Assembly: GCF_000718305.1 (NCBI RefSeq)
Contig: NZ_JOFQ01000005.1
Span: 248,001-312,000, forward strand
Reading direction: 5' to 3'
Length of the DNA stretch: 64,000 nt
DNA from: Streptomyces niger
GTDB taxonomy: Bacteria > Actinomycetota > Actinomycetes > Streptomycetales > Streptomycetaceae
In this document: piece by piece, positions 1,306 to 5,686 of the stretch
Position numbering within the stretch: the first letter of the stretch is position 1
How the letters are laid out: the number at the start of each line of letters is the position of its first letter
Notes under the pieces: model-generated
Told to the model about the DNA's origin: nothing
The model's database searches: none
Seen by the model: only the letters and a program-made list of their open reading frames with translations
Made by a program: the position numbers and the translations under genes

Positions 1306-2310
1306 TCAGACCTGGTAGCGGTCTGGCGCGAACAGGTGCAGGTGCCCGCCGACCCAGTCCGAGGTGCGCCGCAGCCCGACCGCCAGCGGCACCCGCGGCT
1401 GCCAGCCGGACAGCTCCCGGGCCCGCGCGTTGTCCGACAGCAGCCGCTCCACCTCGCTGCCGGCCGGCCGCAGCCGCGCCCGGTCCACGACCACCTCCGC
1501 CTCCCGGCCCGACGCCGCCATCAGCTCCGCCACGAGCTGCCCGATGGAGATCTCCCGCCCGGTACCGAGGTTGACCACCTCGCCCACCGCCCGGTCGCAC
1601 TCCGCGAGCGCGAGGAACCCCTCGGCGGTGTCGGTGACGTAGGTGAAGTCGCGGGTGGGCGTGAGCGAGCCGAGCCTGATCTCGCGGGCGCCGGAGTGCA
1701 GCTGCGCGAGGATCGTGGGGATCACCGCGCGCGCCGACTGCCGCGGCCCGTAGGTGTTGAACGGGCGCACCACCGTGACCGGCAGTTCGAAGGCGTGCCA
1801 GTGGGAGAGCGCCAGCATGTCGGCGCCGATCTTCGAGGCGGAGTACGGCGACTGCGGCTGGAGCGGGTGATTCTCGGCGATGGGCACGGTGCGGGCCGTG
1901 CCGTAGACCTCGCTGGTGGAGGTGTGCACCAGCCGCCGCACGCCGTGCAGCCGGGCGGCCTCGCACACGTTCTCCGTACCGACCACGTTGGTCTGCACGT
2001 AGGCGCCCGGCGAGTCGTAGCTGTACGGGATGCCGATCAGCGCGGCGAGGTGGAAGACCGTGTCGCAGCCGGCCACCGCGTCCCGCACCCGGCCCGCGTC
2101 CCGTACGTCCCCCGCCATCATCTCCACGGGGCCGTCCGGCCGCAGGTACCGGGCCAGATGGCCCTTCTCCGCGTACGGCTTGTAGTGGACCAGCGCCCGG
2201 ACCCGCGCGCCCCGCTCGACGAGCAGGTCGACGAGCGTGGACCCGATGAACCCCTCGGCGCCGGTGACGAGGACCCGGCGGCCCTGCCAGGGATTGTGCT
2301 GCGTGGTCAT
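1306..2310 (-). CDS. LegB-like NAD-dependent nucleotide-sugar 4,6-dehydratase (SDR)
   Basis: A 334-residue extended short-chain dehydrogenase. Visible features are the NAD-binding TGAEGFIG at 16-23, the STSEVYG block at 131-137, the catalytic YxxxK as Y156-SAS-K160, and the substrate-region blocks PFNTYGPRQSARAVIPTI and LGSLTPTRDFTYV. From memory these match the LegB group, UDP-GlcNAc-type 4,6-dehydratases that begin the synthesis of modified amino sugars, better than plain UDP-glucose epimerases. No aminotransferase or later sugar-tailoring gene is nearby. The ATG overlaps the stop of the MurG paralogue (ATGA at 2307-2310) and has a clear GAAGGAG site, so the two are translationally coupled. 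Fold and NAD use are sure; substrate is inferred. Confidence 0.82.
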   Translation of the reverse strand: MTTQHNPWQGRRVLVTGAEGFIGSTLVDLLVERGARVRALVHYKPYAEKGHLARYLRPDGPVEMMAGDVRDAGRVRDAVAGCDTVFHLAALIGIPYSYDSPGAYVQTNVVGTENVCEAARLHGVRRLVHTSTSEVYGTARTVPIAENHPLQPQSPYSASKIGADMLALSHWHAFELPVTVVRPFNTYGPRQSARAVIPTILAQLHSGAREIRLGSLTPTRDFTYVTDTAEGFLALAECDRAVGEVVNLGTGREISIGQLVAELMAASGREAEVVVDRARLRPAGSEVERLLSDNARARELSGWQPRVPLAVGLRRTSDWVGGHLHLFAPDRYQV

Positions 2311-3482
2311 GCGTACTCCTTCGAAGAGGCGGGATACGTGATGGGGGTGGTCGGGGTGGTGCGGCCGGCCAGCCGGCGGACCCTCGCGGCCAGCAGGTCG
2401 GCGGCGCGGGCGTGGTCGCCCGGATCGGCGGCGGCGCCCATCGCCGCCAGCCGTGCCGGGTCGTCCAGCAGCGGGCCGACGACGGCGTCCAGCCGCTCGG
2501 CCGTGGTCTCGGCATCGGGCAGCAGCAGCGCGGCCCCGGCGTCGGACAGCACCCGCGCGTTGTGCGTCTGGTGGTCGCCCGGGGCGTGCGGATACGGCAC
2601 CAGGACGGCCGGCATGCCGATCGTGGCCAGCTCCGCGACGGTCGCCGAGCCGGCCCGGCACACCACCAGGTCGGCGGCGGCGTACGCGAGGTCCATCCGG
2701 TCCAGGTACGGGACCGCCTCGGCGACCGCGGCGCCCCCCTCGGCCACCAGCCGCTCCCGCGCCGCGTCCAGCGCCGCCGGACCGGTCTTGATCACCATCC
2801 GCAGATCGGCGCGGTGGCGGTGCCGGGCTGCCAGCCCGACGGCCGCCTCGGTGAGCCGGGCCGCGCCCAGGCTGCCGCCGTTGACGAGCAGCAGCCGGGC
2901 CCCGTCCGGAACGCCCAGCGCCCGGCGGGCCGGGCCGCGCAGCGCCGCCCGGTCCAGCCCCGCCAGCGGCCCGGACAGCGGCATGCCGACCGTCTCGGCC
3001 CGGTCGCCGCCCGGCAGGTGCGCCCGGCTGCGGTCGAAGGCGAGGGCGATGTGCGGGGTGAGCCGGGCCGCGAACCTGTTGGCCCGGCCCGGTACCGCGT
3101 TGGACTCGTGGATCATGCTCGGCAGCCCCGCCAGCCGGGCGCCGACGATCACCGGCGCGCTGGGGTAGCCGCCCATGCCGACCGCCACCTGCGCGCCCTG
3201 CGCCCGCAGGATCGCCCGGCACTGGGCGCCGGACTTCAGGAGATCGGCGGGGAGCAGGAAGCGGCGGGCGCCCAGCGCCGGATCGAACGGGATCATGTCG
3301 ACGGTGTGCAGGCGGTAGCCGGCCCGCGGGATCAGCCGCGTCTCCAGCCCGCGCTCCGTACCGACGAAGGAGATCACCGCGTCCGGCACGGCGCGGCGCA
3401 GCGCGTCGGCGAGGGCGAGCCCGGGGTAGATGTGGCCGCCGGTACCGCCGGCCCCGATGACAACGGAGAGTGGTGTGCGCAT
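2307..3482 (-). CDS. MurG paralogue, UDP-GlcNAc:undecaprenyl-PP-MurNAc-pentapeptide transferase family
   Basis: A 391-residue GT28 glycosyltransferase. It has the N-terminal glycine loop GGTGGHIYPG (12-21), the HESN motif (MIHESNAVPGRANR) and the C-terminal donor site RAGSATVAELATIGMPAVLV followed by HQTHNA, all MurG hallmarks. Canonical MurG adds GlcNAc to lipid I on the inner membrane face. The housekeeping murG lies in the division and cell-wall cluster, which is not in this window, so this should be a second copy. It is followed by a coupled dehydratase gene and divergent from a two-component system, which suggests an inducible, altered lipid II branch. ATG at 3482 chosen; an in-frame GTG at 3491 is possible. 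Confidence 0.85.
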   Translation of the reverse strand: MRTPLSVVIGAGGTGGHIYPGLALADALRRAVPDAVISFVGTERGLETRLIPRAGYRLHTVDMIPFDPALGARRFLLPADLLKSGAQCRAILRAQGAQVAVGMGGYPSAPVIVGARLAGLPSMIHESNAVPGRANRFAARLTPHIALAFDRSRAHLPGGDRAETVGMPLSGPLAGLDRAALRGPARRALGVPDGARLLLVNGGSLGAARLTEAAVGLAARHRHRADLRMVIKTGPAALDAARERLVAEGGAAVAEAVPYLDRMDLAYAAADLVVCRAGSATVAELATIGMPAVLVPYPHAPGDHQTHNARVLSDAGAALLLPDAETTAERLDAVVGPLLDDPARLAAMGAAADPGDHARAADLLAARVRRLAGRTTPTTPITYPASSKEYA

Positions 3483-4274: not shown

Positions 4275-5686
4275 GCGGCCGGCGCGGGGCCGGGGCCCCG
4301 TGGCGCCGCCGGCGGCCGCTGCGCACCCGGCTGGCGCTGGCCGCCTCCGCGGCCGTCGCGCTGGTCGCGATCGGCGTGTGCACCGCCGCCTTCGTCATCA
4401 TCCGGTACGCCATGGGCCACCAGCTGGAGCTGAACCTCACCCAGTCGGCGACCCTGGTCATGCAGCAGAACCAGGGCCAGCACGAAGGAGCGCCCGGTGT
4501 CCTCGCCGCCGAGTGCCGCTTCCTGTCCGCCCCGGCCTGCTCCCAGATCGTCCCCGCCGACCCCGCGGCCGACCCGTCCGCGGCTTACGCGCTGCCGGTC
4601 ACCGGCGCCGTCCGCGAGGTGGCGGCCGGCCGCCGCGCCCCGTACTTCACCGCCGTCACCGTGCACGGCCACCCCGCCCGGATGCTCGTGCAGCACTTCA
4701 AGGACGGCACGGCGGTGCAGGTGGCGCTGCGCGCGGACACCGTGGAGAAGGGGGTACGGCAGGCCGCCGGGATGCTCGCGGCGGTGGGCGGCGCGGGCGT
4801 GCTGCTGGCCGCCGCACTCGGCTACTGGGTCTCCCGCACGGGCCTGTCGCCCGTCACCCGGCTGACCGCGGCGGCCGAACGCATCGCCGCCACCCGCGAC
4901 GCCGGCCACCGCATCGAACTGCCCGCCGGGCCGCCCGGCCGCGAGGACGAACTGACCCGGCTGGCAGCCAGCTTCAACACCATGCTCGGCGAGCTGGAGC
5001 AGTCCGTCGCCGCCCAACGCCGACTGGTCGCCGACGCCTCGCACGAGCTGCGCACCCCGCTGACGGCGCTCCGCACCAACGCCGAACTCCTGGCCCGCGC
5101 CGACCGGCTGACCGACGCCCAGCGCGACCGCGCCTCGGCAGCCCTGGGCCGCCAGCTCCGCGAGGTGACCACCCTGGTCAACGACCTGATCGAGCTGGCC
5201 CGCGACGAGGAGCCGCAACCGCTGGTCGAGCAGGTGCGCGCCGCGCCGCTGCTGGAGCACGCGGTGGCGGCGGCCCGCGGCCACTGGCCGGAGATCGGCT
5301 TCACCGTACGGATCGACGCGGGCGCGGCGGGGACGACGGTGCCGGGCGTCCCCGCCCGCCTCTCGCGCCTGCTGTCCAACCTGCTGGACAACGCCGCCAA
5401 GTTCTCGCCGCCCGGCGGCCCGGTCGAGGCGGAGCTGACCACCCCGCCGGGCGCGCTGGAGCTCACCGTCCGCGACCACGGCCCGGGCATCGCCGACGAG
5501 GACCTGCCGCACGTCTTCGACCGCTTCTACCGCGCGCAGGCCGCGCGTGCGCTCCCCGGCTCCGGGCTGGGCCTGGCGATGGCCCGGCAGATCGCCCGGG
5601 CGCACCACGCCGAGCTCACCGCGGAGCGGGCCCCGGGCGGCGGGGCGCTGTTCCGGCTGCGCTTCCCGCTGACGCGGGAGGCGTAG
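4271..5686 (+). CDS. Membrane sensor histidine kinase (HAMP-HisKA-HATPase)
   Basis: A 471-residue kinase coupled to the response regulator by a 4-bp overlap. Order: basic N-terminus, membrane helix about 20-46, an extracytoplasmic sensor of about 120 residues, second membrane helix about 166-188, HAMP, dimerisation/phospho-acceptor H258 in VADASHELRTPL, then the ATPase domain with N box (NLLDNAAKFSP), G1 (DHGPGIADEDL), F (FDRFYRA) and G2 (GSGLGLAMA). The sensor has two cysteines (about 82 and 90) that could form a disulfide outside the membrane. The cue is unknown; its position beside a lipid II enzyme suggests a cell-envelope signal. Confidence 0.93.
   Translation: MSGRRGAGAPWRRRRPLRTRLALAASAAVALVAIGVCTAAFVIIRYAMGHQLELNLTQSATLVMQQNQGQHEGAPGVLAAECRFLSAPACSQIVPADPAADPSAAYALPVTGAVREVAAGRRAPYFTAVTVHGHPARMLVQHFKDGTAVQVALRADTVEKGVRQAAGMLAAVGGAGVLLAAALGYWVSRTGLSPVTRLTAAAERIAATRDAGHRIELPAGPPGREDELTRLAASFNTMLGELEQSVAAQRRLVADASHELRTPLTALRTNAELLARADRLTDAQRDRASAALGRQLREVTTLVNDLIELARDEEPQPLVEQVRAAPLLEHAVAAARGHWPEIGFTVRIDAGAAGTTVPGVPARLSRLLSNLLDNAAKFSPPGGPVEAELTTPPGALELTVRDHGPGIADEDLPHVFDRFYRAQAARALPGSGLGLAMARQIARAHHAELTAERAPGGGALFRLRFPLTREA

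What the first reader, a model, noticed from the sequence alone, without database searches (positions are those of the whole stretch)
1306..5686. Candidate inducible lipid II-modifying system: MurG paralogue, LegB-like dehydratase and a two-component system
A MurG paralogue is translationally coupled to a LegB-like (UDP-GlcNAc 4,6-dehydratase-type) enzyme, and this pair is divergent from an OmpR-type two-component system across 63 bp with a one-turn CTAAGA direct repeat. Seen: motifs, overlaps, repeat. Known: MurG moves GlcNAc from UDP-GlcNAc onto lipid I; LegB-type enzymes alter the same kind of sugar. Inferred: on envelope or antibiotic stress the kinase turns on a route that puts an altered hexosamine on lipid I, changing the target of lipid II-binding antibiotics. 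I know of no described system of this design. The secreted hydrolase at 5694 is a possible extra part.
Basis: partly seen in the sequence, partly recalled or inferred. Interest (0 to 1): 0.8.

Follow-up and report, generated by a model that had tools for sequence, protein, structure and literature searches.

The report
Regulated second lipid II synthase cassette
Some Streptomyces carry a regulated spare copy of the enzyme that finishes the cell-wall building block, paired with a sugar-altering enzyme; in distant relatives the same pair sits inside the cell-wall gene cluster, which hints at a cell wall made with an unusual sugar.

Summary
In detail: a MurG paralogue (2307-3482, -) overlaps a LegB-type gene (1306-2310, -) by 4 nt and diverges, across 63 bp with an 11-bp-spaced CTAAGA repeat, from an OmpR-type regulator and kinase (3546-5686, +). 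In 80 named Streptomyces/Kitasatospora loci LegB follows MurG2 in 80, the regulator diverges in 78 (kinase 77), and the repeat pattern is exact in 76. The hydrolase at 5694 is adjacent in 6. In two other actinobacterial families its members lie in the dcw cluster as murG - nucleotidyltransferase - legB - murC, as the only strong MurG hit of five genomes. LegB was seen beside 0 of 40 other murG places. So MurG2 very likely makes lipid II and LegB is tied to that step. Donor-pocket residues differ (N127G in dcw members, A263S in cassettes). No altered sugar is shown, and no reductase or aminotransferase was found beside LegB. The published spare lipid II synthase MglA differs at both ends. The antibiotic purpose is unsupported.

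The parts
2307..3482 (-). MurG2: MurG-family glycosyltransferase paralogue (391 aa)
   Evidence: Pfam/NCBIfam; residues T15, H18, Y105, S191, E268, Q288 (E. coli numbering) kept; tree
1306..2310 (-). LegB-type NAD-dependent sugar-nucleotide 4,6-dehydratase (334 aa), 4-nt overlap with MurG2 (ATGA)
   Evidence: TIGR04180 440 bits; STSE and YxxxK invariant in a 34-row alignment; 4-nt overlap in 75 of 80 loci
3546..4274 (+). OmpR-family response regulator (242 aa)
   Evidence: Pfam; divergent from murG2 in 78 of 80 loci
4271..5686 (+). Sensor histidine kinase (471 aa), 4-nt overlap with the regulator; Cys82 and Cys90 lie between the two N-terminal helices, taken as extracellular
   Evidence: Pfam; both Cys present in 77 of 77 aligned kinases; helices 17-66 and 156-191 in the model
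3483..3545 (.). 63-bp divergent promoter region
   Evidence: sequence; sequences of other loci
3506..3522 (.). Putative operator: direct repeat CTAAGA-N5-CTAAGA, 11-bp period
   Evidence: exact pattern in 76 of 80 loci; kept in L109, where no regulator lies adjacent
3529..3536 (.). Second conserved block TTTGGCAG (CTGCCAAA in the murG2 direction), role unknown
   Evidence: a loose form of it lies within 20 bp of the repeat in 75 of 80 loci

Best explanation
A regulated second lipid II synthase with its own sugar-nucleotide enzyme. The kinase senses a change outside the membrane, perhaps through its invariant Cys pair (inferred). The regulator binds the TCTTAG repeats and turns on murG2-legB (inferred from a conserved operator). 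MurG2 transfers a hexosamine from a nucleotide sugar to lipid I, making lipid II (very likely; residues kept, and its relatives are the sole strong MurG of their genomes). LegB converts a nucleotide-GlcNAc to the 4-keto-6-deoxy form (likely, from family and STSE/YxxxK motifs), and this product, or a reduced form, is a second donor for MurG2, so some lipid II carries an altered sugar (inferred; about even odds). Sub-step odds: MurG2 acts on lipid I 0.85; regulator controls the pair 0.85; LegB is a 4,6-dehydratase 0.75; its product reaches lipid I through MurG2 0.5; purpose is antibiotic evasion 0.2.
For: MurG2-legB adjacency 80 of 80 named loci, RR 78, HK 77, 4-nt overlap 75; legB also beside all 30 MurG2 loci of the genus sample. 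Operator exact in 76 of 80, 3 Kitasatospora with one change. Frankiales-named MAGs (f14) and G577 (another class): murG - CBS/nucleotidyltransferase - legB inside the dcw cluster, with murC next in L161, L163 and L178 (murC over its cut-off in all three). It is the only MurG match above 40 bits in 4 of 4 f14 genomes and the only one at E <= 1e-30 in G577. G577's MurG is over the MurG cut-off (280.9 of 250.25 bits), 37-43% identical to MurGs of 21 genomes of its class but 51-52% to f14 and Streptomyces MurG2, so the block seems to have moved together. 32 LegB-linked MurGs form one clade, 100/95, with 37 housekeeping rows outside. LegB beside 0 of 40 other murG places (42 stretches). 9 contig lengths shared between the listed LegB and MurG hits. 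Pocket: Gly at position 127 in 5 of 5 dcw members and in the 120 listed of 1241 related hits, Asn in 37 of 37 housekeeping rows; Ser at 263 in 27 of 27 cassettes.
Against: No aminotransferase or ketoreductase among the ten commonest neighbour families that I scanned; LegC model over cut-off in 0 of 14 genomes. A 4-keto sugar cannot be elongated at C4, so bulk lipid II of this kind would stop glycan growth. No nucleotidyltransferase lies beside the window's cassette, unlike the dcw versions. Cassettes keep Asn127, so the pocket changes differ between the two forms. Two f57 genomes carry near relatives of this MurG without LegB in the 14-17 kb looked at. A different MurG-like protein, MglA, gives normal muropeptides and works without partners in S. 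coelicolor (PMC8092295), so a spare lipid II synthase needs no LegB.
Confidence: 0.5

Rival explanations
1. Spare lipid II synthase only. MurG2 uses ordinary UDP-GlcNAc when the housekeeping MurG or the envelope is stressed; LegB serves another envelope glycan that is needed under the same conditions.
For: Residues for UDP-GlcNAc kept in cassettes, including Asn127. MglA precedent: a MurG-like protein replaces MurG with normal peptidoglycan and needs no other Kitasatospora gene (PMC8092295). The own genome has a LegB paralogue (80%) in an unrelated sugar cluster at C28. f57 MurGs lack LegB.
Against: MurG2 has legB beside it in 80 of 80 named loci and 30 of 30 sampled ones, and in dcw clusters legB lies between murG and murC.
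Confidence: 0.3
2. One reading: antibiotic stress turns on an altered lipid II that lipid II-binding antibiotics no longer recognise.
For: Conserved own regulator and operator; analogy with VanRS-type precursor remodelling, and murG-like genes next to some van operons (PMC8698665, passages).
Against: No resistance gene seen among the ten commonest neighbour families scanned; no MurG2 match at E <= 1e-60 in the plasmid collection; the dcw versions stand among housekeeping genes; the kinase sensor gave no fold match of its own. Many lipid II binders recognise the stem peptide, pyrophosphate or MurNAc rather than GlcNAc (recalled).
Confidence: 0.12
3. MurG2 glycosylates another prenyl-linked intermediate, with the LegB sugar, for a surface glycolipid or polymer, not peptidoglycan.
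For: Cassette MurG2 lost Arg163 and has A263S; TIGR01133 score just under cut-off.
Against: The sister MurGs of f14 and G577 are the only strong MurG there and sit in dcw, so the clade makes lipid II; Arg163 also varies in housekeeping MurGs (Arg in 25 of 37).
Confidence: 0.08

Closest known systems
MglA, alternative lipid II synthase of Kitasatospora viridifaciens (Zhang et al. 2021, PMC8092295)
   Same: A second, chromosomal, non-dcw MurG-like protein with both GT28 domains in Streptomycetaceae; replaces MurG.
   Different: Its primers encode ends MRLIVTG and VLLSVVDR, not found at the ends of 9 MurG-family sequences checked, 6 of them cassette MurG2 including 3 Kitasatospora; all 80 named MurG2 share VVIGAGGTGGHIYPG near the start. 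Published identity to MurG 31.2%; MurG2 38-39% over the whole alignment. No LegB or regulator in the passages read.
LegB (TIGR04180), dehydratase of legionaminic acid synthesis
   Same: Best family match by far (440 bits); STSE and YxxxK motifs; in dcw versions and at C28 also next to a nucleotidyltransferase, as in Leg pathways (recalled).
   Different: Below the curated cut-off; no LegC aminotransferase over cut-off in 14 genomes; partner is MurG.
VanRS-controlled vanHAX precursor remodelling
   Same: OmpR-type two-component system next to genes that act on a peptidoglycan precursor; some van operons carry murG-like genes (PMC8698665, passages).
   Different: The neighbours here are MurG2, LegB, a TetR regulator and a hydrolase; the candidate change is in the sugar, not the peptide.
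CutRS of Streptomyces (PMC12802291)
   Same: Two-component pair; kinase with two conserved extracellular Cys.
   Different: CutR site TAWATAAA, absent from the 63-bp gap; Cys spacing 18 (C85, C103) versus 8 (C82, C90).

Membership tests
MurG (lipid II synthase) | GT28 N- and C-terminal domains | tested here: met
   PF03033, PF04101
MurG (lipid II synthase) | Conserved residues T15, H18, Y105, S191, E268, Q288 | tested here: met
   kept in 27 of 27 cassette rows
MurG (lipid II synthase) | Score over NCBIfam TIGR01133 cut-off | tested here: not met
   236.4 against 250.25 bits; dcw relatives 245-253 bits in f14, 2 of 4 over, and 280.9 in G577
MurG (lipid II synthase) | GlcNAc transfer to lipid I | not testable with these tools
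   needs assay or complementation
MglA (PMC8092295) | Sequence agreement with published mglA primers at both ends | tested here: not met
   best windows 4-5 mismatches of 7 and 4-6 of 8 in 9 sequences; ends only, the full MglA sequence was not at hand; the 1146-bp length agrees in L085 and L086
LegB, TIGR04180 | Score over curated cut-off | tested here: not met
   440 against 475 bits
LegB, TIGR04180 | Extended-SDR dehydratase motifs (S/T-S-E, YxxxK; motif meaning recalled) | tested here: met
   S131-T132-S133-E134, Y156, K160 invariant in 34 rows
Legionaminic acid pathway | LegC aminotransferase in the genome | tested here: not met
   0 of 14 genomes over the TIGR04181 cut-off, best 267 of 420 bits
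CutRS | CutR box TAWATAAA | tested here: not met
   absent from the window's 63-bp gap
CutRS | Two conserved extracellular Cys in the kinase | tested here: met
   Cys82, Cys90 in 77 of 77, but other spacing
van resistance operon | vanH, vanA, vanX next to the regulators | tested here: not met
   window neighbours are MurG2, LegB, TetR and an alpha/beta hydrolase

The most novel reading that the evidence does not exclude
A lipid II with a 4-keto-6-deoxy hexosamine, or its reduced form, instead of GlcNAc exists: constitutive in actinobacteria with legB in the dcw cluster, regulated in Streptomyces. Because a 4-keto sugar cannot accept a further unit, such lipid II could only start a glycan chain and would cap its non-reducing end, protecting it or setting chain number.
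Probability: 0.3. Interest if true: 0.88.

Novelty: new variant of a known kind. Interest (0 to 1): 0.62.

Why it matters
The GlcNAc-MurNAc backbone is regarded as nearly invariant; known changes come after polymerisation or in the peptide (recalled). A MurG clade inherited with a sugar-nucleotide dehydratase, and apparently replacing the native murG in a dcw cluster, suggests that the donor sugar itself can be changed at the lipid I step. It also gives a way to ask what the unstudied MurG-like proteins of Streptomyces do, with genes, operator and predicted mass shifts in hand.

Tried and rejected
Hydrolase at 5694 as a part: rejected, adjacent in 6 of 80 loci. Identity with MglA: thought likely at first (same genera, same 1146-bp length in two loci), rejected on the primer-derived ends. 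A search for the LegB of K. viridifaciens among named hits showed many Kitasatospora but not that species in the 120 listed of 3190. Identity of the regulators with CutRS: rejected. Legionaminic acid route: rejected, no LegC. Plasmid carriage: no match; a mutase gene lies near the cassette in 55 and a TetR gene in 53 of 67 long loci. Fold searches were not decisive: LegB resembles epimerases, dehydratases and a reductase alike; the kinase sensor had no match of its own. The PNAS paper on the MurG:UDP-GlcNAc complex is not held, so which hydroxyl Asn127 contacts stays unverified; the list of donor-site positions is recalled from UniProt. Literature: 10 searches; none of the listings showed MurG with LegB.

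Flaws of my own found on checking: the murC reference protein was out of frame, so its murC hits mean nothing; murC was checked again with a model. One outgroup row of the LegB tree (L126) was by mistake a piece of the C28 LegB. Of the 42 control stretches, L164 and L165 repeat L144 and L145, leaving 40 places. One of the 9 shared contig lengths, 8742, is the G281 contig already seen, and 2005 may be chance.
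Full report
What is there. The window lies in a genome of 8.49 Mb whose nearest named relatives are Streptomyces. Four genes at 1306-5686 form two overlapping pairs that diverge: murG2-legB on the minus strand (ATGA overlap at 2307-2310) and a response regulator and sensor kinase on the plus strand (ATGA overlap at 4271-4274). MurG2 has both GT28 domains and scores just under the curated MurG cut-off; the genome's stronger MurG lies elsewhere. 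LegB-like scores 440 bits with TIGR04180, under its cut-off of 475, and 167 bits with the next model.

Conservation. In 150 genomes sampled from the genus, own included, 30 carry MurG2 at 73-100% identity; the next matches are 43% and below. All 30 of these loci show legB beside it. One genome-contig scan gave 80 named loci, the best 80 of 168 relatives. In them legB follows in 80 of 80, the regulator diverges in 78, the kinase in 77 (L052 ends at the contig edge; L109 and L112 lack both), the murG2/legB overlap is 4 nt in 75, and the hydrolase is adjacent in 6. In 67 long loci the recurring neighbours that I scanned are a methylmalonyl-CoA mutase, TetR, thioredoxin/TPR, MarR, pyruvate kinase and acetate kinase genes and families of unknown function; one of ten representatives matched nothing; no aminotransferase or ketoreductase was among them.

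Operator. TCTTA[AG]AA[CG]NNTCTTA occurs 77 times in 1.58 Mb, in 76 of 80 loci; three Kitasatospora have TATTAGAACTCTCTTA. By eye every hit lies just upstream of murG2. L109 keeps the repeat although no regulator is adjacent, and L112 keeps two TCTTA units 11 bp apart with a changed middle (by eye). This points to a site that serves murG2-legB and not only regulator autoregulation. L107 has a tandem array of the block. A loose CTGCCAAA-like block lies within 20 bp of the repeat in 75 of 80 loci.

Sensor. Cys82 and Cys90 of the kinase are present in 77 of 77 aligned kinases (window and 76 loci; the 37% identical L081 kinase was below my cut). CutS of Streptomyces uses two such cysteines to sense failed disulfide formation (PMC12802291, section 8 read), but CutR binds TAWATAAA (passages), absent here, and the Cys spacing differs. 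The signal is therefore unknown; a thiol or envelope cue is a guess.

Beyond the window. A class-wide sample (394 genomes) showed MurGs 54-55% identical to MurG2 in four genomes of family f14. There the gene is the dcw murG: in L161 ftsI-murE-murF-mraY-murD-ftsW-murG-nucleotidyltransferase-legB-murC-ftsQ-ftsZ, in L163 the same from mraY to ftsQ; the contigs of L160 and L162 end inside legB. Hits from three of these contigs, matched by length, carry names beginning 'Frankiales'. It is the only MurG match above 40 bits in 4 of 4 of these genomes (68-91% complete). LegB occurs in 4 of 12 genomes of that family (E <= 1e-60). A phylum-wide sample (396 genomes) found G577, of another class, with the same order and murB added. 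It is the one genome of 24 of its class with such a LegB beside murG; a second, G629, has a 54% LegB on another contig than its murG. G577's MurG is 37-43% identical to MurGs of 21 genomes of its class but 51-52% to f14 and Streptomyces MurG2, so murG-nucleotidyltransferase-legB appears to have entered that dcw cluster as a block.

Tree. In a 72-row MurG tree the LegB-linked MurGs (window, 26 of the 80 named loci, 5 dcw rows) are one clade at 100/95, with the two f57 MurGs that lack LegB just outside (100/91, 100/98) and 37 housekeeping MurGs outside those. LegB was found beside 0 of 40 other murG places, most seen with about 1.5 kb on each side (42 stretches, two repeated). The LegB tree places cassette LegBs and the C28 paralogue near the f14 ones (91/83); G577 is on a long, unresolved branch. 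Nine contig lengths occur in both the LegB and MurG hit lists (115 and 118 lengths; one is the G281 contig, one may be chance), which suggests shared contigs. That the 120 listed MurGs all have a LegB is not shown.

Pocket. T15, H18, Y105, S191, T265, E268 and Q288 (E. coli numbering) are kept in the 32 LegB-linked rows. Position 127 is Gly in 5 of 5 dcw members and in the 120 listed of 1241 related hits (f14 proteins among them), but Asn in 27 of 27 cassettes and 37 of 37 housekeeping rows. Position 263 is Ser in 27 of 27 cassettes and Ala in 36 of 37 housekeeping rows. Arg163 is lost in 27 of 27 cassettes, but also in 12 of 37 housekeeping rows. These fit a changed donor, without proving it.

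Chemistry. LegB-type enzymes make 4-keto-6-deoxy-GlcNAc nucleotides (recalled). LegC, the next step to legionaminic acid, is over cut-off in 0 of 14 genomes. Without a reductase the sugar could not be extended at C4; a reductase encoded elsewhere, or a bifunctional LegB, is possible. Hence the alternative that such lipid II only starts chains.

Prior work. PMC8092295 (abstract, section 8 part 1, sections 10, 13, 27, 30 and passages read) shows that MglA, a MurG-like protein of Kitasatospora viridifaciens, replaces MurG; a mutant without murG made normal muropeptides; MurG-like proteins occur in 38% of strains and in many groups. Its mglA primers encode ends that MurG2 lacks, so its 'wild-type peptidoglycan' does not speak for MurG2. 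PMC8698665 (passages) notes murG-like genes in some van operons. PMC4790310 (section 5 read) names T16, H19 and Y106 (that paper's numbering) as critical MurG residues. Ten literature searches showed no LegB-MurG pairing; the library holds open-licence papers only.

Verdict. The pair and its regulator are real, conserved and tied to lipid II synthesis. The altered sugar is a good, testable hypothesis; the antibiotic purpose is not supported.

Noticed in passing
L131:2442-16159 (contig C28 of the same genome): A LegB paralogue (80% identical) sits in a cluster that by eye holds two GT4-like glycosyltransferases, a sugar nucleotidyltransferase, two further SDRs, a PIG-L-like deacetylase, a radical SAM protein and an ABC transporter: a possible glycosylated natural product.
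   Followed up: partly
L107:9835-9976: Tandem array of the operator block upstream of murG2, four near copies about 42 bp apart, by eye.
   Followed up: no
L081:1535-3678: In Streptomyces diastatochromogenes the kinase is only 37% and the regulator 69% identical to the window's while MurG2 is 88%: the two-component system diverged or was exchanged.
   Followed up: no
L186, L187 (G543, G557): Family f57 has dcw murGs nearest to the LegB-linked clade but no legB in the stretch, perhaps marking where the pairing arose.
   Followed up: partly
L116:1480-2931: The nearest kinase paralogue in the genome (39%) also has two Cys in its sensor region, differently spaced.
   Followed up: no
L035:12909-14201: A thioredoxin/TPR protein gene recurs in 50 of 67 long loci a few kb beyond the cassette, on the far side of the TetR gene; any link with the kinase's Cys pair is untested.
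   Followed up: no
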